Virus record (IMG/VR): IMGVR_UViG_3300042511_000312
Span: 1-34,247 of that record
Source: a virus
DNA: 34,247 nucleotides
Strand: one strand, 5' to 3'
Shown: positions 1,654-30,765 of the stretch, one piece after another
How the letters are laid out: each line of letters begins with the position of its first letter
Numbering within the stretch: position 1 is the stretch's first letter
Notes under the pieces: model-generated
What the model saw: the letters and a program-made list of their open reading frames with translations, nothing else
Databases searched by the model: none
What the model was told of the DNA's origin: nothing
Translations under genes and position numbers: made by a program

Positions 1654-1655
1654 AA

Positions 1656-5240: not shown

Positions 5241-5300
5241 TAATACAAATATCCTATGAAGGATGAGTATTACGAGAATGGATTGAATAAATAACTTAAT

Positions 5301-18805: not shown

Positions 18806-18825
18806 ATATACTATATGAAAACATT
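18806..18825 (+). repeat. Start-site repeat, copy 1 (20 nt identical to 20209-20228)
   Basis: ATATACTATATGAAAACATT covers the last 9 nt of the leader and the first codons of the gene at 18815. An identical copy surrounds the start at 20218. The upstream part contains TATACT, which resembles a -10 box, but no -35-like element is shared, so a promoter is only a possibility. Confidence 0.55.
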
Positions 18826-19114
18826 TAACGAACTTATACTAGAAGCTAATAGATTTTCTTCTAGTGGATTTACCTTTACTATGATAGGTAATCAAGACCA
18901 TGCCGGATCTTATATTCAATTCATCCCAGATGGAAAAACTGTTGATAATTATCCTAAAGAAGAAATGGCATCTTTTATTGAAAAGTACTTTAATAACATG
19001 GATTTTTTTAGAGATTGCATGGAATGGGAAAAAAATCACGTAGCAGCTGGATTAATTTTTAGAATAAACGCTAGATATTTAGCAGATTCACTTTTAAAAG
19101 AATTTAAAAACTAA
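18815..19114 (+). CDS. Small protein with T4 capsid-targeting-like N-terminus (99 aa)
   Basis: 99 residues beginning MKTFNELILEA, very close to the capsid-targeting peptide of T4 internal proteins (MKTYQEFIAEA), with a gp21-type site L/I-x-Glu before Ala (after residue 10). The rest (FTFTMIGNQDHAGSYIQFIPDG... then helices) is not a family I recognise; it has mixed alpha/beta character and no catalytic motif. It starts 15 nt after the tail-tube-like gene, and its stop directly abuts the next gene, which has nearly the same first 19 nt. I infer a protein packaged in the head and processed by a prohead protease. Confidence 0.65.
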   Translation: MKTFNELILEANRFSSSGFTFTMIGNQDHAGSYIQFIPDGKTVDNYPKEEMASFIEKYFNNMDFFRDCMEWEKNHVAAGLIFRINARYLADSLLKEFKN

Positions 19115-19477
19115 ATGAAAACATTTAAAGAACATCTTTTATCGGAAGGTAGATTTACCGAAGCTGAATTATTAGAACTTAATGAAAATTTAAAATCCGA
19201 ACTTACGACAGAAGAAGAAGCTAAGGTAGATGCCGCAATCAAAGCTTTTTGCGAAGAATATATGGACACTAAAACTATTAAAGACCTTAATGAAGAACTT
19301 ACAAATGAAGGATTTTTAGGATCTATCCTAGGAGGACTTACAGGATTTGCTTTAGGTTCATCGATCGGAAAAATTATTGCTAATGTTCTAGGAATAGAGA
19401 AAGGTGTAGTTTTTGATATGTTAACTAGTCGTTTAGTAGGTGCTGCTTTAGGTGCTGCTTTAGGCAAAAAAATATAA
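19115..19477 (+). CDS. Small capsid-targeting-like protein with C-terminal glycine-zipper membrane segment (120 aa)
   Basis: 120 residues. The N-terminus MKTFKEHLLSEG repeats the capsid-targeting-like peptide, with a possible cleavage after Glu11 (L-x-E/G). Residues about 13-65 are acidic and helical. From residue about 67 to the end the chain is a hydrophobic glycine zipper: FLGSILGGLTGFALGSSIG, then an RLVGAALGAALGKKI end. Gly-x-x-x-Gly repeats pack transmembrane helices, as in membrane-inserting or pore-forming small proteins. The ATG directly follows the preceding TAA. Start codon and first codons are nearly identical to the previous gene, suggesting duplication of the 5' end. I infer an injected membrane-active protein; no specific function is known to me. 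Confidence 0.6.
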   Translation: MKTFKEHLLSEGRFTEAELLELNENLKSELTTEEEAKVDAAIKAFCEEYMDTKTIKDLNEELTNEGFLGSILGGLTGFALGSSIGKIIANVLGIEKGVVFDMLTSRLVGAALGAALGKKI

Positions 19478-19478
19478 T

Positions 19479-20084
19479 ATGACTACAATAGGAATTGACT
19501 TCTCTATAAACTCCACTGCCGTAGCAATAAACAAAGATGGTGAACTTACTATCTTTTCTTTTGTTCCTAATTATCGTTCTGAGCTTGCTGGATCTAAAAT
19601 GCATAAAGCTTTATCTGATATGATTAGTGTTATTTCTTATGAAAAAGGAGGTAACACTAAAGATGCGTTAGCTGATCAACGAATAAAACTTCAAAATGCC
19701 GATAATCTATCAGATCAAATAATAGAAGCAATAAATCCTTATATCTCAGAAACTCCACAAATTAGAATTGAAGGTTTTTCTTTTGGTTCTAAGGGAAATT
19801 CCTTTATTGATTTAGTATCATTCAATACTTTCCTAAAAGTTAAATTGATTCAAATTTATGGACATTGTATTGATGTAGTGCCACCAAAGTCTCTAAAGAA
19901 AATATACACTGGAAATGGAAACGCTTCAAAATGTGATATGTTACGTAAGTTCTTGGAAGTAAAAGACACTCCTTTCAAATTAAGACTTGTAGAATTAGGA
20001 CTTGATCGAGCAGAGGAATTTACTCTACCAAAACCTATTGATGATATTACTGATGCTATTGCTCTGTCTTGGGTTTCATTGTAG
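19479..20084 (+). CDS. RuvC-like Holliday junction resolvase / RNase H-fold nuclease (201 aa)
   Basis: 201 residues with RuvC-type features. GIDFSINSTA at the N-terminus carries the first acidic residue (Asp7). RIEGFSFG holds Glu98. A PPKSLKKIYTGNGNASK segment (residues about 135-151) matches the Lys and TGNG-A-K pattern seen in RuvC. DDITDAIALSW near the C-terminus holds the last acidic residues (Asp188/189, Asp192). RuvC-family enzymes cut four-way DNA junctions; in a T4-like phage such an enzyme could resolve recombination intermediates before packaging, the role T4 fills with endonuclease VII. Length is slightly over the bacterial RuvC (~170 aa). It starts 1 nt after the glycine-zipper gene and ends in TAG. 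Structure-selectivity cannot be judged from sequence. Confidence 0.75.
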   Translation: MTTIGIDFSINSTAVAINKDGELTIFSFVPNYRSELAGSKMHKALSDMISVISYEKGGNTKDALADQRIKLQNADNLSDQIIEAINPYISETPQIRIEGFSFGSKGNSFIDLVSFNTFLKVKLIQIYGHCIDVVPPKSLKKIYTGNGNASKCDMLRKFLEVKDTPFKLRLVELGLDRAEEFTLPKPIDDITDAIALSWVSL

Positions 20085-20217
20085 TAAGCAAACCTTGGGT
20101 TTCCCTTGGCCACCTCGGAATAAACTTCTTCAATTTCCTTGAATACAAGTAATCATTATATGACTCGAGGTCTTGTGCTGTTTCATAAAATCAACTTATT
20201 TTCAAGATATATACTAT
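20085..20217 (+). other. Intergenic region with a possible decayed minus-strand gene fragment
   Basis: 133 nt without a + strand gene. Its first ~100 nt are visibly richer in G+C (about 40% by hand count) than the surroundings. On the minus strand two overlapping frames read like protein: one gives ETAQDLESYNDYLY, the other KEIEEVYSEVAKGNPRFAYYN, as if one frame had been broken by a 1-nt indel. A 10-bp direct repeat CTTGGGTTTC lies at 20068-20077 and 20094-20103. The region ends in the leader of the gene at 20218. Confidence 0.35.
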
Positions 20218-20228
20218 ATGAAAACATT
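20209..20228 (+). repeat. Start-site repeat, copy 2 (20 nt identical to 18806-18825)
   Basis: The same 20 nt as at 18806-18825, spanning the leader and first codons of the gene at 20218. The shared upstream bases support MKTF at 20218, not the in-frame ATG at 20173, as the real start. Confidence 0.55.
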
Positions 20229-20544
20229 CTTAAATTACGCAGAATTCGTTGAAATATTCGAAACTTTTGAATTAGACGAAGAAAACAAAAATCCACCGGA
20301 TATTGGTTTATATAGCAAAGGTGGTAGAAGAGCCTTAAAGGGAACTGGATATGCCGATAAAGAAAAGGCCGAATCTAGTTGTAAGCAATTAGATGGATTA
20401 GAAAAGAAAGGCGAACACCAATGGGCTATGTCGATAGCTACTACAATGATGAATAGAGCAGCTAAACATGAACACCAAACTGAAGGTATGCGAGATGCAA
20501 TCAAAGTTTATAAAGCTTGGATCGAGAAAAATAGAACTACATAA
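20218..20544 (+). CDS. Small protein with capsid-targeting-like N-terminus (108 aa)
   Basis: An in-frame ATG exists at 20173, but I chose 20218 because the start context is identical for 20 nt to that of the gene at 18815, and because it gives the MKTF N-terminus shared by its relatives. The peptide MKTFLNYAEFVEIFE is a looser version of the targeting motif, with candidate P1 glutamates at residues 12 and 15. The body (GLYSKGGRRALKGTGYADKEKAE ... HQWAMSIATTMMNRAAKH ... YKAWIEK) is basic and helical and repeats Lys/Gly-rich turns. It resembles small phage proteins of unknown function; I cannot name a family. The stop directly abuts the KTSC gene start. Confidence 0.6.
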   Translation: MKTFLNYAEFVEIFETFELDEENKNPPDIGLYSKGGRRALKGTGYADKEKAESSCKQLDGLEKKGEHQWAMSIATTMMNRAAKHEHQTEGMRDAIKVYKAWIEKNRTT

Positions 20545-20871
20545 ATGAACTTTTTGAAATACGAAGATTTCTTGAATGAAGCGGCGTATAATAAGCCGGT
20601 TGATTCTTCGCATTTAGAAAACATCAAATATGATTCTGAAACTAGAAAGTTAGAAATTGAATTTTGGGATGGTTCAGTCTATCGTTATTTTGATGTACCA
20701 CCTAGAGTATTTAGAATTTTTGGTGATGAAAAGACTAAGCTTGATTCATTAACTAGTGGAGTTCAAAATTTATTTTCCAGAGAAAAGATGAAAACTTATG
20801 GTACTCGATTTTGGAAAATGATTAGACGAGAAGATTATAAATATGAAAAAATAAAAGATGCTAAATCCTAA
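20545..20871 (+). CDS. KTSC-domain protein with capsid-targeting-like N-terminus (108 aa)
   Basis: 108 residues. Residues 1-13 read MNFLKYEDFLNEA, the shared peptide with a predicted cut after Glu12. Residues about 20-93 match the KTSC domain pattern: SSHLENIKYD, then LEIEFWDGSVYRYFDVPPRVF, and a Thr-Tyr-Gly-Thr-Arg-Phe-Trp end. KTSC is a small beta-rich domain, named from the C-terminus of some lysyl-tRNA synthetases and common in phage and bacterial single-domain proteins; its biochemical role is not established. The combination with the peptide suggests a packaged KTSC protein. Its 3' end overlaps the HNH gene by 14 nt. Confidence 0.75.
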   Translation: MNFLKYEDFLNEAAYNKPVDSSHLENIKYDSETRKLEIEFWDGSVYRYFDVPPRVFRIFGDEKTKLDSLTSGVQNLFSREKMKTYGTRFWKMIRREDYKYEKIKDAKS

Positions 20872-21208
20872 TTTAATAAATTTTGAAACATATCGAAATA
20901 ATTATCAAGAGCTATTAGACAACAAAGAAGATTATTTTATATTTGTCCGAGCTTTAACGGAAAGAAATTACGATCTTTTTAAAAATATCATTAATCCTAA
21001 AAATTTAAAGAGAAGCTGGAAAGCTAATCATTTAGACCACATCTATTCAATATCACAAGGATTCAAAGATAAAATGGATCCTTTTTTCTTAGCACATCCA
21101 TGCAATTTACAAATGCTAAAAGCGCGAGAAAACAAAAAGAAAAATGCTAGATGCGGTCATACAACAGAAGAGCTGAATGAAAAAATATCACATTTTGGTG
21201 ATGTTTAA
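20858..21208 (+). CDS. HNH endonuclease (116 aa)
   Basis: 116 residues. The core reads ANHLDHIYSISQGF (residues about 56-69), then DPFFLAHPCNLQMLKARENKKK. This matches the HNH layout: His-x-Asp-His for metal and base catalysis, a central Asn-Leu, and a terminal Glu-Asn-x-x-Lys. No CxxC zinc pair is visible. Such small free-standing HNH nucleases in T4-like phages are often homing endonucleases placed beside conserved replication genes, and this one lies just upstream of gp32. A role in DNA metabolism or packaging is also possible. The ATG overlaps the end of the KTSC gene in another frame by 14 nt. Confidence 0.7.
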   Translation: MLNPNLINFETYRNNYQELLDNKEDYFIFVRALTERNYDLFKNIINPKNLKRSWKANHLDHIYSISQGFKDKMDPFFLAHPCNLQMLKARENKKKNARCGHTTEELNEKISHFGDV

Positions 21209-21378
21209 TGAATCCAAGAGGATATATAACTCATATAACAAGTAAGTAAAGACCCTAACAACTAGTAAGTAAAAATCGACTGATTAATTTTAGTCCGGAA
21301 GTAAGTTAAGAAAGTAGATTGAATCTATCTAATAAGTAGGTCATATTAAATAAACAAAGTAAATAAAACGTAAGTAAA
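21209..21378 (+). promoter_or_regulatory. gp32 leader with direct repeats and small hairpins; candidate autogenous operator
   Basis: 170 nt without a gene. GTAAGTAAA occurs exactly at 21242-21250, 21265-21273 and 21370-21378 (touching the ATG). Related copies are GTAAGTTAAG at 21301 and AGTAAATAAA just before the last exact copy. Two possible RNA hairpins lie between them: GACTGA/TTAGTC with loop TTAATT (21278-21295, one G-U pair) and TAGAT/ATCTA with loop TGA (21315-21327). T4 gp32 represses its own translation by binding an A/U-rich repeated leader next to a pseudoknot. The layout here is analogous, but the regulatory role is inference. A promoter is likely here too, but I cannot identify one with confidence. 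Confidence 0.5.
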
Positions 21379-22311
21379 ATGGAAAACAATTTCGACATCT
21401 TCAACATTGGCATCGACGCATACCAAGAAGAAGCAAAAACCGCATCAAAGAGCTCAGAGTTTAAAACTGACCCTAAGCTATCTAAAGACTCTATCTACAG
21501 AGCAATCGTACGATTCGTACCAAACATCAAGAACCCTAAAAAATCTATCGTTAAGAAATTCTCCTATTGGTTAGAATTGCACGAAGGTGAAGGATTCTAC
21601 GTTGACTGTCCTTCTTCAGTTAATGAAAAATCAGTAATTCAAGACACATTCTGGAAATTGTTCAAATCTGAATCAGCATTTGACAAAAAACAAGCAGAAC
21701 ACATCAAGCGTAAAGAGTACTACTATTCTTATGTTGAGATCGTGAAAGACCCACAACGTCCTGAATTAGAAGGAACAATTCAAATTTTCAGATATCCAAA
21801 AGCTGTTAAAAAGCTAATCGACGCTCAAATCCAACCGGATGCTACTGAGATCGAAATGGGTACAACACCAACAAATATCTTCGATTTCTTCGATGGTAAA
21901 GATTTCTCAATCAAAGTTACACTTAAAGGTGGTTATTGGAATTATGACGAATGTAAATTCGCAACAGCTAATTCTCCAATCTCTGTTAAAGGAGTTAAAA
22001 TGGAAAATAATGCTGAATCTCGTAACTTAATTCTTTCTCTTTATGAAGGATTACAACCACTTGAAGAATTTGACTTTAAACCATGGTCAGACGAACAAAG
22101 AGACAGAGTTAATAAATTCTTAGGCGAATTAACTGGTAATCCAGGTGCTGCATATGCTGCAGTAAGTTCACCATCAGCTCCTTCACAACAATCTGCACCT
22201 GCACAATCTGCACCTGTTAAAACTCAAAACCTTGCTGAAGTATCTTCTGATGCGGTATCTGGTAATGATGGCGACATCGAAGATTGGTTAAAAGAGTTTG
22301 ATATTAACTAA
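21379..22311 (+). CDS. gp32: Single-stranded DNA-binding protein, gp32-like (310 aa)
   Basis: 310 residues (T4 gp32 is 301). The N-terminus is followed by SIYRAIVRFVPN, which matches the start of the gp32 OB-fold core, then FSYWLELHEGEGFYVDCPSS, KRKEYYYSYVEIVKDPQ and TIQIFRYPKAV. The C-terminal part has a Ser/Pro/Ala/Gln-rich linker (about residues 255-285) and an acidic tail GDIEDWLKEFDIN, the element that in T4 contacts other replication proteins. It coats ssDNA and organises replication, recombination and repair. Oddity: the His/Cys zinc ribbon of T4 gp32 is missing; only one Cys remains in that region. Codon choice is noticeably richer in C-ending codons near the start than in neighbouring genes, consistent with high expression. 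It has its own leader and terminator, hence a separate transcript. Confidence 0.85.
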   Translation: MENNFDIFNIGIDAYQEEAKTASKSSEFKTDPKLSKDSIYRAIVRFVPNIKNPKKSIVKKFSYWLELHEGEGFYVDCPSSVNEKSVIQDTFWKLFKSESAFDKKQAEHIKRKEYYYSYVEIVKDPQRPELEGTIQIFRYPKAVKKLIDAQIQPDATEIEMGTTPTNIFDFFDGKDFSIKVTLKGGYWNYDECKFATANSPISVKGVKMENNAESRNLILSLYEGLQPLEEFDFKPWSDEQRDRVNKFLGELTGNPGAAYAAVSSPSAPSQQSAPAQSAPVKTQNLAEVSSDAVSGNDGDIEDWLKEFDIN

Positions 22312-22331
22312 GATTTCTTTTTTAATAACTC

Positions 22332-22362
22332 AAAGGCATTCATTTCGATGAGTGCCTTTTTT
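22332..22362 (+). terminator. Rho-independent terminator after gp32
   Basis: A 12-bp stem AAAGGCATTCAT / ATGAGTGCCTTT with one G-U pair and a TTCG tetraloop, running into a T6 tract. It lies 20 nt after the gp32 stop and 12 nt before the primase ATG, so it separates high-level gp32 transcription from the downstream replication genes. Confidence 0.9.
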
Positions 22363-22373
22363 ACTCTCTACTC

Positions 22374-23456
22374 ATGGAATTAACAAAACAAAAACAAGAC
22401 GAAATAACGGCAAAAGTTCAGAAAATACTTCTTAGTAATTTCTCGGGTCCTAAATCTTCTATTAAAATAAATAGAGATCGAATTAATTTTGCATGTCCTT
22501 ATTGTGGTGATGGTTCAGATATACACAAAAAGCGTGGAAATATCTATTGGAAGTCTCTATCATTTCATTGTTATAATGGTGGCTGTCAAAAGCGACATGC
22601 TAATGTCGTAGAATTTCTTAGAGACTTTGACCAATCAGTTACCAATAAAGACGACTTAATGTTCTATCTCGATTATATTCGAGAAAACCAAGTAATCACA
22701 CCTACAAAAGATTACATGGAACTTAGTGTTTTTGAAAATCTTAAGGAATATTCCATACCGTTAGATGTGATTAAGAAAAAACTTAATTTAGTATCGCCTA
22801 AAGAAAATTTCAAAATCGAAAGGTATCTAAAAGGTAGATTTCTGCATAATAAGCTAGAGTATTTTTTATACGATCCAAAAGAAGAACAACTTTATATTTT
22901 CAATCTTACACCAGATAAACAACATACTTTCGGTTGGCAGATTCGTAATTTCAAACCAAAGCGTGAGAAATACGTCAGTTACAATATAGAGAAAATCAAC
23001 TTATTGATTTTAGACCGAGAATTAAAAATGCCAAATGACGAAGCAATTCGAATGAATACGCTTAGCATTTATTTCAATATTGCCCTTGTAGATTTTATGA
23101 AACCTGTTACGATTTTTGAAGGACCTATCGATTCACTTTTATGTCCTAATTCTGTGTCTATCTCCGGATTAGATAAACCAACCGATATGTTCGACGAAAT
23201 TCCAACAGTTAGATATTTATTTGACAACGACTATGTAGGTCGTCGCAAAATGGAAGAAAAACTAAAAAGAAGAAAAACTGTTTTTATGTGGAATAAGCTA
23301 GTAAGAGACTTCAAAGTTCAACCTAGATTAGCCGACATGAAAGAAGTTAAAGATTTTAACGACTTAATAAAGTACAGCTGGTTACAGAAAAACGATGCAG
23401 CAAGAAAATACAACGAATATTTTACGGCAAACCCGTTGGATATTAGATCAGTGTAA
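22374..23456 (+). CDS. gp61: DNA primase, gp61-like with zinc finger and TOPRIM domain (360 aa)
   Basis: 360 residues, close to T4 gp61 (342). The N-terminal zinc-binding domain carries CPYC (residues 41-44) and HCYNGGC (His65, Cys66, Cys71). The TOPRIM catalytic core has IFEGPIDS (Glu249), LFDND (Asp284, Asp286) and a DMKEVKDFNDLI stretch (Asp321-Asp330). It makes RNA primers for lagging-strand synthesis together with the replicative helicase. The ATG is 12 nt after the gp32 terminator, so it needs its own promoter or read-through. Its 3' end overlaps the next candidate gene. No shortening of catalytic motifs is visible. Confidence 0.85.
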   Translation: MELTKQKQDEITAKVQKILLSNFSGPKSSIKINRDRINFACPYCGDGSDIHKKRGNIYWKSLSFHCYNGGCQKRHANVVEFLRDFDQSVTNKDDLMFYLDYIRENQVITPTKDYMELSVFENLKEYSIPLDVIKKKLNLVSPKENFKIERYLKGRFLHNKLEYFLYDPKEEQLYIFNLTPDKQHTFGWQIRNFKPKREKYVSYNIEKINLLILDRELKMPNDEAIRMNTLSIYFNIALVDFMKPVTIFEGPIDSLLCPNSVSISGLDKPTDMFDEIPTVRYLFDNDYVGRRKMEEKLKRRKTVFMWNKLVRDFKVQPRLADMKEVKDFNDLIKYSWLQKNDAARKYNEYFTANPLDIRSV

Positions 23457-23670
23457 AGTGGAAGAAGAACTTGATAAATTCGATAAACGAGTTGCCGACA
23501 GTAAAGGTAACTTTAAACTAATAGTTGATTTTAATCAACTAGAAGTAGAATTCAAGGGAAAACAAATTGACATTGGCAGCATAAAATATAAAAAGAAAGA
23601 AAAACCTAAGACTAAGGAGGTAATAAACTTTCGTAAAAAGAAATCAAAAAATTCTAACGACTTATTCTAA
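23395..23670 (+). CDS. Small basic protein ending in -NDLF (91 aa, or 70 aa from an alternative GTG)
   Basis: The frame overlaps the primase end by 62 nt if the ATG at 23395 is used. A GTG at 23458, just after the primase stop, would give 70 residues starting before EEELDKFDKRVADSKG. The second part is Lys-rich (YKKKEKPKTKE ... RKKKSK) and ends SNDLF. I recognise no family. Short C-terminal hydrophobic-acidic peptides are used by T4 polymerase and late-transcription factors to bind the sliding clamp gp45; the DLF end is compatible with that but far from proof. Its stop overlaps the UvsY ATG (TAATG), so translation is probably coupled. Confidence 0.55.
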   Translation: MQQENTTNILRQTRWILDQCKVEEELDKFDKRVADSKGNFKLIVDFNQLEVEFKGKQIDIGSIKYKKKEKPKTKEVINFRKKKSKNSNDLF

Positions 23671-24116
23671 TGACAGACGAAGAACAAAAGGTATCTGATC
23701 TCGAAACGGCATTAGAAACTGAAAGAGGAGAATACGCTAGAAAGATTAGTGAAATCATTAAGATGATATACAAAATAGACCGAGTTGCAGAAGCTCAGGT
23801 CTTAATGTTGTCGTTTAGGCATATGATGGTTGAGAAATTAGCCAAATATCGATCTGCGATATATAACAAGAAATCAAATGATGCAAACTTTAGGAAGCTC
23901 CGATACGAGTACTATAAGACAGCACATAATATAAAATTAGACTATAAAGAAATAAACGACTTTATAAATTCTGATATGTCTTTAAGGATTAGACAAACTA
24001 ACCTTTTAGAGAATCAATTAACTTTCTATACACAATGTATTGAAACGTTAGATCGAATGGGATATTCTATAAAAAATGTAGTTTCAATAGCTGAAATGAA
24101 TCATAGAAACTCATAG
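23670..24116 (+). CDS. uvsY: Recombination mediator, UvsY-like (148 aa)
   Basis: 148 residues, mostly helical; T4 UvsY is 137. The C-terminal half (INDFINSDMSLRIRQTNLLE, then TQCIETLDRMGYSIKNVVSI) follows the T4 UvsY pattern, in which an L-x-x-Asp ... L segment leads to a GALDAIKSRGFAIKHI-type helix. UvsY loads the UvsX recombinase on gp32-covered ssDNA. The neighbourhood supports this strongly: UvsW follows directly, as uvsY and uvsW are close neighbours in T4. Sequence similarity is low, so a profile search is the proper test. Overlaps the preceding stop by 1 nt; ends in TAG. Confidence 0.65.
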   Translation: MTDEEQKVSDLETALETERGEYARKISEIIKMIYKIDRVAEAQVLMLSFRHMMVEKLAKYRSAIYNKKSNDANFRKLRYEYYKTAHNIKLDYKEINDFINSDMSLRIRQTNLLENQLTFYTQCIETLDRMGYSIKNVVSIAEMNHRNS

Positions 24117-24133
24117 AAAATAAAATTTAACCT

Positions 24134-25651
24134 ATGCAATGGGATTTAACACATAACGACAAACTACTTACTCTGACGTCAGCCTCAGAAATAGAAATGG
24201 AGCAAATAAAGCTTTCATTTACTAGAGAAGCGGCTAATGCCAAATGGGATCCTCGTGTTAAAAAAGGATGGTGGGATGGTAAAATAAGCTACTTCAAAGG
24301 TGGTAGATATTTGCCTTCAGGCCTTTGGAACGAAGTTGTGAATGTTGGTAAGCAATACAATTTTGAAGTAGGTATCAACGGAATTGAACGTAAATTTGAT
24401 GCAGATATAAACAAACAGGACTTTACCGAATGGGTAAATCTTAAATTTGCTAATTCTGCTAGAAAGCCTAGAGATTATCAAATAGAAACTGCATTTCAAA
24501 TCATTAAATATAAAAGTTGTTTAGCCGAATTAGCAACATCAGCAGGTAAGACATTGATTATTTTTATGGTAATTTCTTTTCTTTTAGAAACTAGAAAAAG
24601 CCATAAAGTGTTAATGATTGTACCTACGGTAGATTTAGTGGTTCAATCGTCTGAAGACTTTTATGAGTACAATACAGATTCAGTTAACATGAAACTACAA
24701 ATACAACAAATATTTGCAGGCTCTGTTATTAGAGATGGTGCTAATATCGTTGTAGGTACTTACCAATCCTTAGTTAAAAAAGACAAAGAATATTTTGATT
24801 CATTTGATACGGTTATTGTTGATGAAACTCATAAGGCGAAATCACAATCAATCAAAACTATTTTAGAAAAATGTGAAAATGCAGATAGAAGATTTGGTCT
24901 TTCTGGTACAATCCCTAAAGAAGGAACTTTAGATAGATTGACTATTATGGCTTACACCGGACCTATTATTTCTTCTATTAGCGCAGATTTCTTAATTGAA
25001 AAGGGACATATTACTCCATGTGAAGTATATGCAATTGAAATGGATTATGCACCTCAAGAAGTAAAAGAAGGCTTTAAAATTTTACATGCTAGATCCGAAG
25101 AAGATAGAAAGAAATTGCTTAAACTTGAACAAGATTATGCGATTCAATCAAATGCTAGACTGCAATTTATCACTGATATGATTTTAAAGAATCATAAAAA
25201 TTCACTTGTGCTTTTCTTTAGAATTGAATACGGTAATAAAATCTACGATATGCTAAGACAAAAAACCGTAAGACGAGTATTCTATATTGATGGTGGAACC
25301 GATAAAGACATTCGTTCAAGTCACAAAGAAGGTCTTGAAGAAGGTGAAGGTAAAATTATGATTGCATCTTATGGTACATTCTCAACTGGTATTAACGTTA
25401 CAAATATCCATACCATATATCTTACGGAATCTTTCAAGTCAGAAGTTATCATTCGTCAATCTATTGGTAGAGGACTTAGAAAACACGAAGACAAAAAGAA
25501 ACTTCTTATCATTGATTTTATTGATGATTTTAGAGTTGGTCGATACAACAACTACCTATACAAACACGGTTTAGCTAGACAAGAAATCTATGACGATCAG
25601 AAGTTCCCTTTTCAAGTGAAGACCGTAGATGTAGGAAAGATATATAACTAA
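24134..25651 (+). CDS. uvsW: ATP-dependent DNA helicase UvsW-like (505 aa)
   Basis: 505 residues (T4 UvsW is 503). The N-terminal domain contains KWDPRVKKGWWDGKISYF, typical of the UvsW double-stranded-DNA-binding region. The superfamily 2 motifs follow: Walker A ATSAGKT (134-140), DETH box (230-233), SGT motif III (257-259) and motif VI RQSIGRGLR (441-449). UvsW unwinds branched DNA, drives fork regression and Holliday junction migration, and removes R-loops, which in T4 shifts replication from origin- to recombination-dependent mode. All core motifs are intact. It is 17 nt downstream of uvsY, suggesting one recombination operon. Confidence 0.9.
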   Translation: MQWDLTHNDKLLTLTSASEIEMEQIKLSFTREAANAKWDPRVKKGWWDGKISYFKGGRYLPSGLWNEVVNVGKQYNFEVGINGIERKFDADINKQDFTEWVNLKFANSARKPRDYQIETAFQIIKYKSCLAELATSAGKTLIIFMVISFLLETRKSHKVLMIVPTVDLVVQSSEDFYEYNTDSVNMKLQIQQIFAGSVIRDGANIVVGTYQSLVKKDKEYFDSFDTVIVDETHKAKSQSIKTILEKCENADRRFGLSGTIPKEGTLDRLTIMAYTGPIISSISADFLIEKGHITPCEVYAIEMDYAPQEVKEGFKILHARSEEDRKKLLKLEQDYAIQSNARLQFITDMILKNHKNSLVLFFRIEYGNKIYDMLRQKTVRRVFYIDGGTDKDIRSSHKEGLEEGEGKIMIASYGTFSTGINVTNIHTIYLTESFKSEVIIRQSIGRGLRKHEDKKKLLIIDFIDDFRVGRYNNYLYKHGLARQEIYDDQKFPFQVKTVDVGKIYN

Positions 25652-25667
25652 AAAGTATCTAACTCTA

Positions 25668-25901
25668 ATGGCATTACTTAAATTTAAAGCCTTTTCTAAA
25701 TCACTAAAGGAAGAAAAAATCCAAAAAGACTTAGAGAAAAAAGCTTCAGAATATAAAAAAGTCTATTTAGAAAAACTTCAATCTTACGGAGTTACTGATG
25801 CTGCACATCTTGATGATATGCAGTTAGAAGAATTCTTAGAAGATATGAAGACGTATAGACAAAAACCTAAAACTAAATCCGAACCTTCAGAAATACTATA
25901 A
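25668..25901 (+). CDS. Small helical protein, unknown function (77 aa)
   Basis: 77 residues, starting MALLKFKAFSKSLKEEK. Charged and helical over most of its length (LEKKASEYKKVYLEKLQSYG), with an acidic patch AHLDDMQLEEFLEDM and a polar tail. It lies 16 nt after uvsW, and its stop directly abuts the next ATG, so it is likely co-transcribed with the nucleotidyltransferase-like gene. The size and coiled-coil look recall small scaffold or core proteins, but I know no family to place it in. Confidence 0.5.
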   Translation: MALLKFKAFSKSLKEEKIQKDLEKKASEYKKVYLEKLQSYGVTDAAHLDDMQLEEFLEDMKTYRQKPKTKSEPSEIL

Positions 25902-27134
25902 ATGGCAGAGATTCAAACATTAAGAGAGGTATTTCGTAAAGAAGGACTTCAGTTTGTACATAAACTTTTCGATAACTTTGTAATAGTGAGCGAAAAGCTT
26001 AATGCAACTAGGTTCGCTTTCGAAAAAAATATCGATGGTACTATCGACTTCTATCGTAAAGATGGAAAGATAACTGCTATCGAGAGAACTCTTAATCAAA
26101 TATTTGAAGAGCCTATAAATTACATCCAAAATCTTTCTCCAGAAATACTCTCAAAGATACCAGTAGGATATCGATACGGCTTTAGATATTTTCATTCGAC
26201 TGAACCTATTAACATCAAATATGATAAAATACCTCTTAACGGTTTAGTACTTACTGACATTATTAAGATGGATGGAAATAAAACTAAAGTTATTGATGAT
26301 ATCGTAGTACAAAATGGAATTGCTGATTTGTTGATGGTTGATAAACCTCCAGTGCTTTGGTATGGTAAATTAGACGATGTACAGAAAACTCTATTAACGG
26401 ATTACCTAAGAACATCTGAAGAAAATTTACTTGCTAAATTTCAAACTACATCTTTTACTAAATACTTTATTTCGATTGTTAATCCTTCATTGAAGAAAAC
26501 TGCTTTAAACGATGATATTGAGAAACCGGTAGATTCTATAATCTTTAAATTCATCGGAAATTCTACTTCAGATATAATGTATGCAAAGGCCGTTGACCCT
26601 GTAATTCAACAAATAATTCGTACTAACGACGAGGAAAGAGAACCTCAGGATATGTACGGAATAATCCTATCTGATATAGTTGAATTTGTTAAAATAAACG
26701 GAATCAATAAATATAAATTAGAAGATGGTATGCCTGACGAAAAATTCGTTAAGCTAATGTGTCTAATTTACAATGATTATATCAAAAAGAATGAGTATAA
26801 ATTTGAAGGCGTTGAATTAGATGCACTTTCATTTACTACAATACCTAAATTTGATTTAAACTCCGGTTTCATTCCTAATTTAGAAACTCGAGAATCTATA
26901 GCAAAAACTACTATTAATAAAAATCTATTTAAGATAATTGTTTCATCGTTTTCAAAACCTAAAAGAAAACCTACTGGAACAATGACTCAATTGTTGGTCG
27001 ATGATTTGAAAACGTTAAGTGATAGAATCAAAACGAAAATAGATATGCCAAAGTCTACTACTAACGAAGGTATGATGACATTTGAAGATTATTTAGCTTT
27101 GAAAGAAGAGAAGATGAGAACGATCAAAGATTAA
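25902..27134 (+). CDS. RNA-ligase/nucleotidyltransferase-like protein with altered motif I (410 aa)
   Basis: 410 residues. The N-terminal 230 residues follow the layout of covalent nucleotidyltransferases: VSEKLNATRFAFEK (residues about 30-43, motif I-like Lys), DFYRKDGKIT, then GYRYGFRYFHSTEPINIKYD (motif III-like), VDSIIFKFIG (motif IV-like) and MYAKAVDP (motif V-like Lys). The usual motif I is K-x-D-G-x-R; here it reads K-L-N-A-T-R, so the Asp-Gly pair is missing. I recall similar proteins, some annotated as kinase/nucleotidyltransferase, in marine T4-like phages; their substrate is not established as far as I know. The C-terminal half is helical, ending with NEGMMTFEDYLAL, which echoes the peptide found at the N-termini of the small neighbouring proteins. 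Enzymatic activity is uncertain. Confidence 0.5.
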   Translation: MAEIQTLREVFRKEGLQFVHKLFDNFVIVSEKLNATRFAFEKNIDGTIDFYRKDGKITAIERTLNQIFEEPINYIQNLSPEILSKIPVGYRYGFRYFHSTEPINIKYDKIPLNGLVLTDIIKMDGNKTKVIDDIVVQNGIADLLMVDKPPVLWYGKLDDVQKTLLTDYLRTSEENLLAKFQTTSFTKYFISIVNPSLKKTALNDDIEKPVDSIIFKFIGNSTSDIMYAKAVDPVIQQIIRTNDEEREPQDMYGIILSDIVEFVKINGINKYKLEDGMPDEKFVKLMCLIYNDYIKKNEYKFEGVELDALSFTTIPKFDLNSGFIPNLETRESIAKTTINKNLFKIIVSSFSKPKRKPTGTMTQLLVDDLKTLSDRIKTKIDMPKSTTNEGMMTFEDYLALKEEKMRTIKD

Positions 27135-27157
27135 ATATATAAAAAAACAACAACCTT

Positions 27158-28213
27158 ATGAATTTTACCAGAGACTTTCTAAATGAAATTCTTATTTGTA
27201 GAGAATCTATCAAAGTACTTTTAGAAGAAGGTACGGTTGTGACTATTAATTCTGGTGATGAATTTACTCGAATAAATGACATTGTTGCAATAAGTGAAAA
27301 CTATGGAGATTACATAGGAGAAAGAGTACAAATTAAAAGAAAATACGGGCAATATGCATCTAAACTTGCAAACAGTTCAGCACCTATACGAGACAAAGTA
27401 ATTGAATTTGTAGGTGCACAGTTCGTAACTAAAGAAGACTTAGACCATTTCTTTTTAGATTTGTCGAAGAATAGAGGAAAGACTATCAACCAAAAGCAAT
27501 GGTTTGATCGAAATGAAAAATATTTCCAATCATTTAAAAATGCAGGAAAGCCTTTATTAACCCTTTCAATTTACGGAAAACGAGTATTACAACACATTTT
27601 ACAAAATAAAAAAACTACCAACGAAATGGTTAAAGAATCAATCGGACTTTTTAAGTTCAATACAATTAATGAATCAAAAACTGAGCCTATTTTTGAAGGT
27701 GCTGTTGATTTATCTAAACAATTTGCATTAGTTAGAACCGGTGGATCTATTGGAACTCGAAATTCATTTCCTATTTTTGTAGGTAGAGATATGGGTAACG
27801 TTATAGAAACTGGCGATGACAAAGATGCATTAGTTGCAATGAAATCTCGTATGAATAAATCACTTTCTCCAGGAGACAAGAAATATTACGGAATCTCTCA
27901 TAAAGTAGTTGAATTGACTAACGGTAAAAGAAAACAAATAAACGATCTTATTGCTTTACAGAATAAATCTGAAAATGAAGATGTTATTTCTGAATCAAGA
28001 ATTGTATATCCGGAAGAACAAATTAAAAAAGAATGTATTTCTAGACTTTCAGATTTCTTTAGAGTTCCTGCAAATGCATTAACTAAATTCAAATTTGATG
28101 GAAATGATAATATTAAAGAACTTACAAAAGCTCTTACTTCTACATCCGACGAAGGAACTGCTCAATATTATAAAGTTGCTATCATGATGGCCAAAAGAGA
28201 CTTAGGGCTATAA
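27158..28213 (+). CDS. Unknown phage protein, possibly capsid-targeted (351 aa)
   Basis: 351 residues beginning MNFTRDFLNEI, a shorter form of the FLNE motif seen in the neighbours, though with Ile instead of a small residue after Glu10. The rest is mixed alpha/beta and highly charged, without Cys pairs, membrane segments or nucleotide-binding loops. Internal sequences INES and IFEGA also look like L/I-x-Glu protease sites. The start lies 23 nt after the previous stop behind an A-rich leader, and the stop overlaps the next ATG by 1 nt. I do not recognise the family. A packaged internal protein is one option; an ordinary cytoplasmic early protein is another. Confidence 0.5.
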   Translation: MNFTRDFLNEILICRESIKVLLEEGTVVTINSGDEFTRINDIVAISENYGDYIGERVQIKRKYGQYASKLANSSAPIRDKVIEFVGAQFVTKEDLDHFFLDLSKNRGKTINQKQWFDRNEKYFQSFKNAGKPLLTLSIYGKRVLQHILQNKKTTNEMVKESIGLFKFNTINESKTEPIFEGAVDLSKQFALVRTGGSIGTRNSFPIFVGRDMGNVIETGDDKDALVAMKSRMNKSLSPGDKKYYGISHKVVELTNGKRKQINDLIALQNKSENEDVISESRIVYPEEQIKKECISRLSDFFRVPANALTKFKFDGNDNIKELTKALTSTSDEGTAQYYKVAIMMAKRDLGL

Positions 28214-28545
28214 TGAAACTTAAAAAATTCAGTGACTTTGTTAATGAAGCCGAGGTTAGGTATTCTATCGAAAGACTTCAATTAGCCAAAAAGACTTGGA
28301 GTCCTGATGATGAGGCAAAAGAAAAATTTGCTAAAAAGAATAAAGATGCTAAGAACATCAATGCATTCATGACTAAAGACGAAGATCGAGAAGAAACTTA
28401 TCGTTTTATATCTTATGGAGAAGGAATCTCGTATAATATCATAGTAAGAGAAAATGGAAAGATAATTATTTCAAATTCATATCCTGACGATGAGAAACGA
28501 AATTTCGATCAAGATTGCAAAATAATAATAGGAAAAACAATTTAA
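28213..28545 (+). CDS. Small protein with capsid-targeting-like N-terminus (110 aa)
   Basis: 110 residues starting MKLKKFSDFVNEAEV, with a predicted cut after Glu12 (V-N-E before Ala). After it come a Lys/Asp-rich helical section (AKEKFAKKNKDAKN) and a compact strand-rich end (YRFISYGEGISYNIIVRENGK ... CKIIIGKTI). No known domain is evident to me. Start and preceding stop share one base (TAATG). It is the first of four consecutive genes with this peptide. Confidence 0.65.
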   Translation: MKLKKFSDFVNEAEVRYSIERLQLAKKTWSPDDEAKEKFAKKNKDAKNINAFMTKDEDREETYRFISYGEGISYNIIVRENGKIIISNSYPDDEKRNFDQDCKIIIGKTI

Positions 28546-28549
28546 TACA

Positions 28550-28801
28550 ATGCTTAATTACATACCATCATTCGATGAATATCTTAACGAAGCTTCTGAA
28601 GATCGAAGAACACCTGAACAAAAAACTTCGGATTCTATTGCTGCATTAAAAATGTCAGCCGCAAAGATACAAAAATCTATAAAGGAACATCCTGAAAAGA
28701 TTGGTCTGTTTAAGGTTCAACTTGAATTAATAAACGCTAAAATTAACGTTATCAACATTCAAACTAAATTACGTAAAACCCAAAAAGCTTACGCAAAATA
28801 A
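28550..28801 (+). CDS. Small helical protein with capsid-targeting-like N-terminus (83 aa)
   Basis: 83 residues starting MLNYIPSFDEYLNEASE, with a predicted cut after Glu14 (L-N-E before Ala). The mature part would be about 69 residues, basic and almost entirely helical (SIAALKMSAAKIQKSIKEH ... INIQTKLRKTQKAYAK). Small, basic, helical proteins resemble T4 internal proteins in general character. Starts 4 nt after the previous stop. Confidence 0.65.
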   Translation: MLNYIPSFDEYLNEASEDRRTPEQKTSDSIAALKMSAAKIQKSIKEHPEKIGLFKVQLELINAKINVINIQTKLRKTQKAYAK

Positions 28802-28811
28802 AAATATAACA

Positions 28812-29474
28812 ATGAAATTAACGACATTCGATGAATATCTTAATGAGAACTTAAATGAATTCGGTCCTTTAGCTGGTTCAGGTAATGTTCGAGCAAATGA
28901 CCTAGATAACATAAAACGAGAGGCTTCAAAGAAAAGTGAAAGAGGTGAAACTGTTTATGTGGTAGGTGCTAAAAACGGATCTTATAAATTATCTAAATAT
29001 TTCGAAAAGGGAAATACTTATGCTGCATTCTATAATGGTATGCCACAAGTAGTAGAAGGAATTCTAGAAAATGAAAATTTTTTAAATGAGGCCCTTAAAG
29101 ACATTACAATAAGTGATACAGAAGCAGAAGAAATTTTTGACGAAATCAAGCGTCTTACTAAATTACATAAAGAAAAGGGATTTGTTTCTGGTGAAGTTTC
29201 CGTAGATGGATTTGCTAGAGCTTCAGGAGCATTTGGATTAAATCCAGACGATAAAAACCTTAAAATTGCTGGCATCTCTGCAACTACATTTGGTATTTTT
29301 GCAGCTATAACAACTCAAGCTAATATTGTAGTTTGTTACGCTACTTTAGGTTACGATACATTAAAGAAAAAATTAAAACCAGGAAGTTATTCTCTTACTT
29401 TTTATAACGGTAGAGAATCTCATTTCAATCAAATGGCTAGACAATACAAAAAAACAATATACAACTGCAAATAA
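28812..29474 (+). CDS. Capsid-targeting-like protein with second internal LNEA site (220 aa)
   Basis: 220 residues starting MKLTTFDEYLNENLNEFG, with candidate cuts after Glu12 (L-N-E) and Glu16. A second motif ENFLNEALKD occurs near residue 92, so the precursor may be processed into an N-terminal ~80-residue piece and a C-terminal ~125-residue piece. The first piece contains GETVYVVGAKNGSYKLSKYF. The second contains helices, then FGIFAAITTQANIVVCYA, and a small domain ending SLTFYNGRESHFNQMARQY. I recognise no family. Starts 10 nt after the preceding stop. Confidence 0.6.
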   Translation: MKLTTFDEYLNENLNEFGPLAGSGNVRANDLDNIKREASKKSERGETVYVVGAKNGSYKLSKYFEKGNTYAAFYNGMPQVVEGILENENFLNEALKDITISDTEAEEIFDEIKRLTKLHKEKGFVSGEVSVDGFARASGAFGLNPDDKNLKIAGISATTFGIFAAITTQANIVVCYATLGYDTLKKKLKPGSYSLTFYNGRESHFNQMARQYKKTIYNCK

Positions 29475-29475
29475 T

Positions 29476-30045
29476 ATGAAACACATCCCAACCTACGAAG
29501 AATTCGTAAATGAATCGATGCTAAACGAAGCTAGAGTTAAAGCTGCAACACTACTTGAAGAAATAATAGCAGGTAATACTTCTAGAGCAGAAGGCATCAA
29601 AATGTCAGTAGACTTAGCAGAACATTACTTAAATTGGCTAAAAACTTCTCCTTACGGTAAGAAAAATGCTGATATTCCTTTACATATGCTAATTAAAGCT
29701 TCATTTAATTGGGGTATCGAAAGAGGATTAGATCCAAAATTGAAAGTACAATTAGATACTTTAAAAACTACAATCAACAAACCAGTTAATGAAGGTTTCG
29801 ATGCAAACTATTGGGAAGATTATCACGAAAAATCTGCAAAAATACAAAATCCAACTGCCATCCAAATACAACAAGAAGTAGAAGCTTCCGTTGAAGAATG
29901 GAATGATAATAATGAAATGGGTAAGGAAAATGAAGTAACTTCTGCCGGAGAAAAGAAAGTTTTAGCATTAGCAAAACAATTCGCTAAAGCAAAAGGATAT
30001 ATTTGCTCAGACGTTATTGATGCAATGATAGCTCAAGAATCGTAA
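29476..30045 (+). CDS. Capsid-targeting-like helical protein with two tandem Glu sites (189 aa)
   Basis: 189 residues starting MKHIPTYEEFVNESMLNEARV. Two consecutive sites fit an L/V-x-Glu protease rule: after Glu13 (V-N-E before Ser) and after Glu18 (L-N-E before Ala). The remaining chain is mainly helical: ATLLEEIIAGNTSRAEG, HYLNWLKTSPYGKK, then an acidic middle and a basic C-terminal helix VLALAKQFAKAKGYI. No recognised domain. It starts 1 nt after the previous stop and is the last of the four-gene run. Confidence 0.6.
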   Translation: MKHIPTYEEFVNESMLNEARVKAATLLEEIIAGNTSRAEGIKMSVDLAEHYLNWLKTSPYGKKNADIPLHMLIKASFNWGIERGLDPKLKVQLDTLKTTINKPVNEGFDANYWEDYHEKSAKIQNPTAIQIQQEVEASVEEWNDNNEMGKENEVTSAGEKKVLALAKQFAKAKGYICSDVIDAMIAQES

Positions 30046-30051
30046 TTAATT

Positions 30052-30765
30052 ATGCCGGCATTATCTCAATCACAACAAAGATTAATGGGTCAGGCTTATG
30101 CTCTTAAAAAAGGAGATATTCAAGCTAAAGACATTGATGCAGAGTACAGAAAACAAATACAAGATTTAGCAGATGGAATGTCTCTTAAAGATTTAAGAGA
30201 CTTTGCTAAAACTAAACATGATGATTTACCTGTTACGAAAGAATCAAATGAGATTAATGAAAATTCTACAAATCAAGAAAAAAATGAGTTAGCTGATAAG
30301 ATTAAAAAGCTTGCTGATGAATTGGATGTACAATATCGAAAAGAAACTACTTGGAGGAATCATTGTTACTTGAGGATTGCCTATGATAATGCGGCTAATG
30401 CTAAATGGAATACCGTAATAAAAAGTCCTTTTATTGAATTTGCAACAGATAAACAATTAAAAGATGCACTTTCAAATTTAAAAATTTATAAAACTAATAA
30501 AAAACAATTGGAAACCGATAACGAAAAAAGCTTAGAATTTAGAAAAAAAGCAAAAAATTCTATATTAAAAGAATACGTTGAGCTAGATGAAAATTCACCT
30601 ATAGCTACATTAAGTTCAGTTAATGGTATGGGTCCTATTGCATTACCTCAAGGAGATAAAATAGGAAGTGGAGATAATCCAAATCCTTCTTCTAAAAAGA
30701 AAAAAGCCTTTAAGAATTTCAAAGATTTTATTAAAGGACAAACAACCGTACGAGCTGCCTTTTAA
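30052..30765 (+). CDS. DUF3008-domain protein with extension (237 aa)
   Basis: 237 residues. The first ~62 residues match the small DUF3008 family as I remember it: PALSQSQQRLMGQAYALKKG at the start and GMSLKDLRDFAKTKHDDLP at the end. Family members are usually a single domain of about 60-70 residues. Here a long charged helical section follows (ADKIKKLADELDVQYRKE ...), then SSVNGMGPIALPQGD near residues 191-205, and a Lys-rich tail. The function of DUF3008 is unknown. It follows the capsid-targeting-like run after 6 nt but lacks the peptide itself. Confidence 0.65.
   Translation: MPALSQSQQRLMGQAYALKKGDIQAKDIDAEYRKQIQDLADGMSLKDLRDFAKTKHDDLPVTKESNEINENSTNQEKNELADKIKKLADELDVQYRKETTWRNHCYLRIAYDNAANAKWNTVIKSPFIEFATDKQLKDALSNLKIYKTNKKQLETDNEKSLEFRKKAKNSILKEYVELDENSPIATLSSVNGMGPIALPQGDKIGSGDNPNPSSKKKKAFKNFKDFIKGQTTVRAAF

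What the first reader, a model, noticed from the sequence alone, without database searches (positions are those of the whole stretch)
18815..30045. Two cassettes of unrelated small proteins share a T4-like capsid-targeting peptide
Seen: eight small proteins (starts 18815, 19115, 20218, 20545, 28213, 28550, 28812, 29476), and less clearly 27158, begin with a short amphipathic peptide of the form MK-x-aromatic ... [FY][LVI]-N-E before a small residue (MKTFNELILEA, MNFLKYEDFLNEA, MKLKKFSDFVNEA, MLNYIPSFDEYLNEA). Their bodies do not resemble each other. Known: T4 internal proteins IPI-III carry MKTYQEFIAEA, which targets them to the prohead core and is cut after Glu by gp21. Inference: these are packaged, processed and injected proteins, probably early host-takeover or anti-defence effectors. 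The run may represent a modular injected-effector system of this phage group.
Basis: partly seen in the sequence, partly recalled or inferred. Interest (0 to 1): 0.9.

Follow-up and report, generated by a model that had tools for sequence, protein, structure and literature searches.

The report
Huge-phage payload tag and polyprotein system
A huge relative of phage T4 seems to put one short "pack me and cut me" tag on dozens of unrelated proteins, and to string some of them into cuttable chains, so that each virus particle could carry a large, easily rearranged set of proteins into the next cell.

Summary
The shared N-terminal peptide is real and far more widespread than reported. The window belongs to a ~294 kb T4-like phage (record G001, 100% identical; the window bridges that contig's ends). 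A motif matrix finds the tag (MKNIPTFEDFVNE|S type) on 54 of 418 G001 proteins (0.55 expected) and on proteins of held-out relatives, and ranks T4 IPIII and IPII first and second in T4. Its register matches the T4 capsid-targeting sequence: aromatic P7, aromatic P4, aliphatic P3, Glu P1. G001 encodes a gp21-type (S77) protease fused to a scaffold-like part; that ORF has more [LIVM]NE|small sites than any other G001 protein of 150 aa or more.

Beyond the finding: some payload proteins are modular chains. Bodies standing alone behind a tag in one phage recur inside longer proteins in another, and the join falls at [LIVM]xE in 20 of 30 groups (5% at control positions). Window proteins 28812 and 29476 are predicted two-module chains; relatives have untagged chains of up to 1,029 aa with 9 sites.

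Packaging and cleavage are well supported by sequence but unproven; injection and effector roles are inference.

The parts
18815..19114 (+). tagged protein, MKTFNELILE|ANRF (predicted P1 Glu codon 18842-18844)
   Evidence: matrix score 17.7; site table
19115..19477 (+). short-tag protein; predicted internal site LTNE|GFLGSI (P1 codon 19307-19309) before a 55-residue glycine-rich, membrane-like end
   Evidence: score 9.8; TNE|G invariant in 11 of 11 sequences, mean conservation 0.59 upstream and 0.82 downstream
20218..20544 (+). degenerate tag here; tag intact in several relatives
   Evidence: score 1.2; relatives
20545..20871 (+). tagged KTSC-domain protein, MNFLKYEDFLNE|AAYN (P1 codon 20578-20580)
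   Evidence: score 24.6; Pfam KTSC 51.5 bits, cut-off 25
27158..28213 (+). multi-module protein without the tag register; module boundary YIGE|RVQIKRKYG (P1 codon 27320-27322); further candidate site PIFE|GAVDL (27695-27697)
   Evidence: score -5.0; the QIKRKYG module recurs in other contexts; sites
28213..28545 (+). tagged protein, MKLKKFSDFVNE|AEVR (P1 codon 28246-28248)
   Evidence: score 22.1; tagged relatives
28550..28801 (+). tagged protein, MLNYIPSFDEYLNE|ASED (P1 codon 28589-28591)
   Evidence: score 25.3
28812..29474 (+). tagged, predicted two-module chain: MKLTTFDEYLNE|NLNE|FGPL and internal ENENFLNE|ALKD (P1 codons 28845-28847, 28857-28859, 29088-29090)
   Evidence: score 19.6; second module is the body of tagged G003_41660 (29% identity over 154 aa, E 3e-5; single distant relative)
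29476..30045 (+). tagged, predicted two-module chain: MKHIPTYEEFVNE|SMLNE|ARVK and internal PVNE|GFDAN (P1 codons 29512-29514, 29527-29529, 29791-29793)
   Evidence: score 28.7; both modules recur in other contexts next to a Glu site
29794..30042 (+). second module of 29476, predicted compact helical domain
   Evidence: AlphaFold2 pLDDT 91.6, pTM 0.83
30052..30765 (+). untagged neighbour: DUF3008 start; end resembles the capsid protein's N-terminal arm (ELDE|NSPIATLSSVNGMG vs ELYE|NNSLAQLGSVNGMG)
   Evidence: Pfam DUF3008 35.5 bits, cut-off 24; motif listing

Best explanation
The peptide is a capsid-targeting sequence (CTS) of the T4 type used on a genome-wide scale. Proposed steps: (1) more than 50 unrelated proteins are made with a 10-14-residue amphipathic tag (M-K-x-[IL]-P-T-[FY]-x-[ED]-[FYW]-[LVI]-N-E). 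(2) The tag binds the prohead core, here probably the C-terminal part of a ~640-aa protease-scaffold fusion, and draws the protein into the prohead. (3) The gp21-type S77 protease cuts after the Glu and frees the body. (4) Some payload genes have been joined into chains whose modules are separated by the same kind of site (ES-x-[VIL]-[NT]-E|[AG]), so that one precursor gives several mature proteins. (5) The freed proteins leave with the DNA at the next infection and act before phage genes are expressed. Shown by sequence: the tag, its register, protease and capsid genes in the same genome, module joins coinciding with the sites, and the same sites in the protease-scaffold protein. Inferred: steps 2, 3 and 5 as physical events, and the role of each body.
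For: 54 of 418 G001 proteins tagged, 0.55 expected; held-out relatives likewise. T4 control: IPIII rank 1, IPII rank 2, gp61.1 rank 3, IPI rank 11 of 258. Register equals the T4 IPIII determinants (counts). S77 protease and gp23-type capsid genes in G001. 56 of 69 best homologues of these proteins in five relatives are tagged too at >=8 bits. Module test: join at [LIVM]xE within one residue in 20 of 30 groups and 28 of 42 events, 5.0% at 2,040 control positions. Five new contexts of the 29476 second module, found after its site had been listed, all have Glu at the same aligned position. In the GGAYGHL family the Glu before GG is invariant in 8 of 8 although the spacer varies in length. The protease-scaffold ORF has most [LIVM]NE|small sites among proteins >=150 aa in 5 of 7 genomes. 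Tagged genes cluster: 32 adjacent pairs, shuffled mean 6.8, maximum 15.
Against: No proteomics. 10 of 30 groups in the module test miss. Chain sites are enriched in tagged proteins of G001, G003 and G011 but not clearly in G002 (1 of 28), G004 (0 of 8), G006 (1 of 13), G008 (0 of 17) or LR756500.1 (1 of 20). The longest chains have no scoring tag, so how they would be packed is open. G004 and LR756500.1 do not show the scaffold-site excess, and G001 and G006 have nearly the same scaffold ORF. Most bodies have no assigned function.
Confidence: 0.72

Rival explanations
1. The tagged and chained proteins are mostly prohead-core components. Their cleavage sites serve to break up the core and clear it before DNA packaging, as with T4 gp22, gp67 and gp68; few reach the host.
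For: T4 core proteins are cut into many fragments by gp21 (PMC9026906 passages). The sites are densest in the scaffold ORF. The longest chains are untagged. One tagged gene lies between the protease-scaffold and capsid genes.
Against: Over 50 unrelated bodies, many absent from relatives (23 of 59 without a homologue in five relatives), is unlike a conserved core. Some bodies carry domains such as KTSC or cytidylyltransferase-like. One chain module is predicted as a compact autonomous fold.
Confidence: 0.18
2. The tag directs proteins to another place (membrane, tail or a phage-made compartment) or to another protease.
For: 18815 and 19115 directly follow the tail-tube gene, and 19115 ends in a glycine-rich membrane-like stretch.
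Against: Register match to the T4 head tag and retrieval of T4 internal proteins; the same sites are densest in the protease-scaffold ORF of 5 of 7 genomes.
Confidence: 0.06
3. The peptide only reflects common descent or a DNA-level signal (start region, recombination site) and has no targeting role.
For: Some tag codons are biased: Tyr P7 is TAC in 16 of 20 (genome 29%), Thr P8 is ACA in 22 of 31 (genome 28%).
Against: Other tag codons follow genome usage, no two of 52 tag stretches are identical (mean identity 0.63), and the bodies are unrelated. The wording differs between lineages while the residue grammar stays.
Confidence: 0.04

Closest known systems
T4 internal proteins IPI, IPII, IPIII and their capsid-targeting sequence (CTS), with gp21
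   Same: Short N-terminal amphipathic peptide on unrelated bodies; aromatic P7 and P4, aliphatic P3, Glu P1; S77 protease. T-even internal proteins are described as diverse defence proteins sharing only the CTS (PMC3012670 passage).
   Different: 54 tagged genes against three internal proteins in T4; mostly a 13-residue form; payload chains; protease fused to a scaffold-like part.
Polyvalent proteins of phages and conjugative elements (PMC5512222 passages)
   Same: Multi-domain polypeptides predicted to be packaged, processed and injected; domains shuffled between proteins.
   Different: Predicted processing there is mostly by embedded zincin-like peptidases; here joins carry sites of prohead-protease type and the same modules also occur as single tagged genes.
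Ejection and inner-body proteins of phiKZ-like phages (SPN3US; PMC5694885 passages)
   Same: Giant phages with many head proteins; prohead protease removes N-terminal propeptides; two SPN3US paralogues share an identical 15-residue N-terminus.
   Different: [quoted passage not shown] no tag shared by dozens of unrelated proteins is described in the passages read.
bS21-encoding Bacteroidetes huge phages (PMC9723584 passages)
   Same: Complete genomes of 293-331 kb, GC 31.0-33.7% (G001: 294 kb, 32.8%); [quoted passage not shown]
   Different: No S21 gene found in 5 related records including G001. Tag not mentioned in the passages read. Direct kinship not tested.

Membership tests
T4-type CTS-bearing internal proteins | N-terminal peptide with the CTS register (P7 and P4 aromatic, P3 aliphatic, P1 Glu) | tested here: met
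   P7 F/Y 51, P4 aromatic 53, P3 LVI 54, P1 Glu 52 of 54 matrix-selected tags; T4 IPIII and IPII top in T4 with the same matrix
T4-type CTS-bearing internal proteins | S77 prohead protease encoded in the same genome | tested here: met
   G001 246708-247052, E 4e-14, 49.9 bits, cut-off 27
T4-type CTS-bearing internal proteins | Found in the prohead or virion, cut after the P1 Glu | not testable with these tools
   needs proteomics or an in-vitro assay
T4-type CTS-bearing internal proteins | Injected and active in the host | not testable with these tools
   T4 precedent only (PMC9391042 passages)
Polyvalent proteins | Several unrelated domains in one packaged polypeptide | tested here: inconclusive
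   modules shown to be separable and shuffled; packaging not shown
Polyvalent proteins | Embedded peptidase domain for processing | tested here: inconclusive
   no peptidase family above a Pfam cut-off in the 50 proteins; one sub-cut-off Zn_protease match (14.9 bits, cut-off 27) in 238020; the long chains L224, L228, L231, L233 were not scanned
T4 gp21 prohead proteases (S77) | S77 domain above the curated cut-off | tested here: met
   6 of 7 records; fused to a long C-terminal part, unlike T4 gp21 (218-aa open frame)

The most novel reading that the evidence does not exclude
These huge phages run an open, modular payload platform: any protein placed behind a 13-residue tag, or spliced between ES-x-[VIL]-[NT]-E|[AG] linkers in a chain, is packed into the head, cut free by the prohead protease and delivered. 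It would be a payload polyprotein system of a tailed phage, with over 50 precursors per genome and more mature products, whose parts are exchanged between phages both as single genes and as chain links.
Probability: 0.5. Interest if true: 0.92.

Novelty: new variant of a known kind. Interest (0 to 1): 0.82.

Why it matters
If right, one sequence rule picks out the probable injected proteins of a clade of uncultured huge phages, most of them with no known domain: a ready list of candidate host-takeover and anti-defence proteins. A 2026 review names Tad1 as the only anti-defence protein described in jumbo phages so far (PMC13282480 passage). The chains would also show that tailed phages use polyprotein processing for payload delivery, with product boundaries that can be read from sequence and tested in one in-vitro cleavage assay.

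Tried and rejected
Regular expressions for the tag: a loose one gave 75 of 418 in G001 with 27.8 expected, a strict one 37 with 4.4 expected; replaced by a weight matrix.

Tag swapping between close orthologues: not supported. In 17 pairs with bodies at least 85% identical, mean tag identity is 90% against 92% for the bodies.

'All jumbo T4-like phages do this': rejected. PTm1 (also with a protease-scaffold gene), phiM12 and Mel-JY01 have 0 proteins at >=14 bits and a small excess of the general grammar at most (4, 4 and 1 against 1.6, 1.5 and 0.8 expected). A diverged tag there is not excluded.

Nucleic-acid ligase identity for the tagged GGAYGHLxHPFED family: a K-x-D-G motif is invariant by eye (the motif's meaning is recalled), but searches gave no support. 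A lead only.

Structure of the 19115 family: pLDDT 48.8, not used. The second module of 29476 folds confidently, but there was no Foldseek match at E<=0.001 in PDB or BFVD and VIA-align Z was at most 5.7: no function assigned. Its sequence had no match in the phage collection.

S21 as a link to the published bS21 phages: not found in 5 records.

That the system is not in print rests on paper searches in one open-licence library, and on passages, not whole texts, of PMC9026906, PMC5694885, PMC5512222, PMC9391042, PMC9723584, PMC7824862, PMC13282480 and PMC3012670.

Segment clustering gave 15 clusters with both single-tagged and internal members, but its largest cluster of 35 mixes several modules through single linkage, so I do not rest on that number.
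Full report
What the window is. The 34,247-base window is a fragment of a T4-related phage. PHROG matches give a tail-tube protein, a RuvC-like resolvase, a gp32-type single-strand binding protein, UvsY (E 4e-5), dUTPase, DNA polymerase and NrdB, and the 24134-25651 protein matches the annotated UvsW of Acinetobacter phage Ac42. The window is 100% identical to parts of a 294,034-base viral contig, here G001: window 1-8276 matches one end and 8260-34247 the other, so the window bridges the two ends with a 17-base overlap and G001 is probably close to the whole genome. The window has no S77 protease match. G001 has an S77 (gp21-type) domain (E 4e-14) and a gp23-type capsid protein (E 2e-36). The protease domain is the N-terminal part of a 637-aa ORF; the rest looks like coiled-coil scaffold (the scaffold role is my reading). 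PTm1 has a comparable gene annotated 'prohead core scaffolding protein and protease'.

Checking the tag. With a simple gene caller of my own (418 genes in G001, 30 in the window) I learned a motif from G001 N-termini. Random starts converge on MKNLKTFEEFL or NLPTFEEFLNE, likelihood ratios 818 and 730, against 378 for shuffled N-termini. The matrix used below came from a run seeded with a consensus. With it, 54 of 418 G001 proteins score >=14 bits; 0.55 are expected from internal windows. G001 trained the matrix, so the fair figures are the others: G002 28 of 303, G003 27 of 209, G004 8 of 225, G006 14 of 97, G007 3 of 43, G008 17 of 232, G011 17 of 62, and the distant 462-kb phage LR756500.1 21 of 663, with 0.00 to 0.19 expected each. 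G009 and G012 are parts of G001, and G010 and G014 parts of G008, and are not counted; the smaller records and loci are left out of this list. In T4, IPIII and IPII rank first and second of 258, hypothetical gp61.1 third, and IPI eleventh with 5.2 bits. PTm1, phiM12 and Mel-JY01 give none at >=14. Lineages word one grammar differently: MKNIPTFEDFVNE|S in G001, MKYIKEYEEFLLE|A in LR756500.1, MKTYQEFIAE|A in T4.

Register. For T4 IPIII, suppressor-mutant work puts targeting mainly at residues 4 and 7 and processing at residues 8 and 10 (PMC9026906 passages); in MKTYQEFIAE|A these are P7, P4, P3 and P1. In the 54 G001 tags P7 is F or Y in 51, P4 aromatic in 53, P3 L, V or I in 54, P2 Asn in 44 and P1 Glu in 52. 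The matrix chose these tags, so the counts describe rather than prove. Codon usage in the tag is mostly that of the genome, with some biased positions, and no two of 52 tag stretches are identical: selection on the peptide, with some common descent.

A genome-wide set. Tagged genes form 13 groups in G001, the largest with 18 tagged of 21 genes (165,129-180,218); 32 adjacent pairs are tagged, against a shuffled mean of 6.8 and maximum of 15 in 2,000 shuffles. One lies between the protease-scaffold and capsid genes. Of 59 tagged or weakly tagged bodies, 4 pairs are related at E<1e-3. Of 69 best homologues in five relatives, 56 are tagged at >=8 bits; 23 of the 59 have no homologue there.

Chains. 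Several tagged proteins hold internal copies of the site. G001 169016 reads ...LNESVINE|GDMTKFYDGF..., and G003 has that module as a single tagged gene, MNKHIPTFEDFINESIINE|GDMTKFYDGF. To test this I mapped the predicted mature start of each tagged body onto proteins in which it recurs more than 45 residues from the start, in 20 non-redundant records (2,460 proteins, 247 tagged at >=10 bits). A first version gave 24 of 36 events within one residue of an [LIVM]xE, against 9.4% of positions in the same proteins. The full version gave 28 of 42 events and 20 of 30 groups (a group counts if at least half its events hit), against 5.0% of 2,040 control positions inside the same alignments. Ten groups miss. 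Of the ten missing events at E<=1e-10, five concern one cytidylyltransferase-like domain; one (G008_20230 in L016) has VTNE, where P3 is Thr. In tagged G001 proteins the pattern E[SN]x0-3[LIVM]NE occurs 12 times in 8 of 54 proteins (1.63 per 1000 aa; 0.3 in shuffles), against 7 in 338 untagged proteins (0.12 per 1000). G003 (5 of 26 proteins) and G011 (2 of 16) agree; G002 (1 of 28), G004 (0 of 8), G006 (1 of 13), G008 (0 of 17) and LR756500.1 (1 of 20) do not show it clearly.

A later test on the window's own protein. The internal site PVNE|GFDAN of 29476 was listed. A new search then found the second module in further contigs. In ten sequences examined, Glu stands at the same place before the YW of the module. 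My script looked for the last Glu in the nine residues before YW, so finding some Glu was partly by design; its constant offset was not. P3 is aliphatic in 8 of 10. Five contexts are new (L213, L216, L217, L219, L220), among them a single-gene version, MKHIPTFEQFVNE|GFDAKYW, in L217. The module alone is predicted as a compact helical domain (pLDDT 91.6). The full ORFs in L224, L231 and L233 run to 1,029, 921 and 928 aa from the first Met with 9, 7 and 6 sites; L228, with 932 aa, has 2 by this pattern. They begin MAQVN[KR]ISSFKSFTE[VI] and have no scoring tag. Of 2,486 proteins, 15 have at least 3 such sites, and none after one shuffle of each; two of the 15 are the protease-scaffold ORFs of G001 and G006.

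Why the prohead protease. T4 gp21 cuts the scaffold gp22 into fragments (PMC9026906 passages), so the protease-scaffold ORF is the substrate one would name beforehand. It has the highest count of [LIVM]NE followed by A, G, S, T or N among proteins of 150 aa or more in G001, G002, G003, G006 and G008, 5 of 7 genomes; not in G004 and LR756500.1. In G001 it has 8, or 12.6 per 1000 aa, against a mean of 1.10. The G001 and G006 ORFs are nearly the same and not independent. In the GGAYGHL family the Glu before GG is invariant in 8 of 8 sequences although the stretch between tag and site varies in length.

The window's proteins. 18815, 20545, 28213, 28550, 28812 and 29476 are clearly tagged. 19115 is weak but belongs to a conserved family in which an internal TNE|G is invariant in 11 of 11 and is followed by a 55-residue glycine-rich, membrane-like stretch. 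20218 is degenerate here. 27158 lacks the register but contains the shuffled QIKRKYG module. 28812 and 29476 are predicted two-module chains; for 28812 the support is one distant relative. The replication genes named above score below zero.

What the payload may do. Pfam was run on 45 of the 59 tagged or weakly tagged G001 proteins plus 238020 (and 100 for window copies). Curated cut-offs are passed by KTSC (20545), a cytidylyltransferase-like domain (170429), DUF2608 (32385) and RimK-type ATP-grasp (238020); the last two are outside the >=14 set. Weaker hints: an ART-type match below cut-off (109748) and an RNA 2'-phosphotransferase PHROG (110218, E 2.5e-4). In T4, Alt is a packaged ADP-ribosyltransferase and IPI inhibits a restriction enzyme (PMC9026906 passages); IPIII is needed on one E. 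coli strain and works without its CTS when made in the host (PMC9391042 passages). An injected host-takeover or counter-defence set is the likeliest use, by inference.

Verdict. By the sequence tests open to me the tag is a T4-type capsid-targeting sequence. The principle is known: T-even internal proteins are already described as diverse defence proteins sharing only the CTS (PMC3012670 passage). New are the scale, 54 per genome against three internal proteins in T4, and payload chains whose module joins carry the cleavage site. The main rival is that many of these are core proteins made to be broken up. One cleavage assay or virion proteomics would decide.

Noticed in passing
window 15089-18226: The large tail-region protein ends in a Hint-like (hedgehog/intein-type) stretch, CFVEGTYITLPDG...HTYYANGILVHNK (family name by eye, recalled).
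   Followed up: no
L014:8714 and G006:8037 (UvsW counterpart of window 24134-25651): In these relatives the called UvsW piece starts with an intein-end-like stretch (HNYFANGLNVSN) before the conserved helicase sequence, so the gene may hold an intein.
   Followed up: no
window 30052-30765: The untagged neighbour ends with ELDE|NSPIATLSSVNGMGPIALP...GSGD, like the capsid protein's ELYE|NNSLAQLGSVNGMGATRFP...GSGD; perhaps a shared site and arm.
   Followed up: partly
T4 NC_000866 18966-19130 (L141): T4 hypothetical gp61.1 begins MKTFKEFIKE and scores third in T4 after IPIII and IPII: a candidate further T4 internal protein.
   Followed up: no
G001 180224-181513 (L044:4724-6013): Tagged family GGAYGHLxHPFED with an invariant K-x-D-G, in 8 records including LR756500.1; function unsettled.
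   Followed up: partly
G001 170429-171442 (L043:14429-15442): Tagged two-module protein with an HxGH cytidylyltransferase-like domain; in other relatives that domain is fused to the counterpart of window 25902.
   Followed up: partly
window 1-8276 / 8260-34247 against G001: The window joins the two ends of the 294 kb contig with a 17-base overlap, suggesting a circular map.
   Followed up: partly
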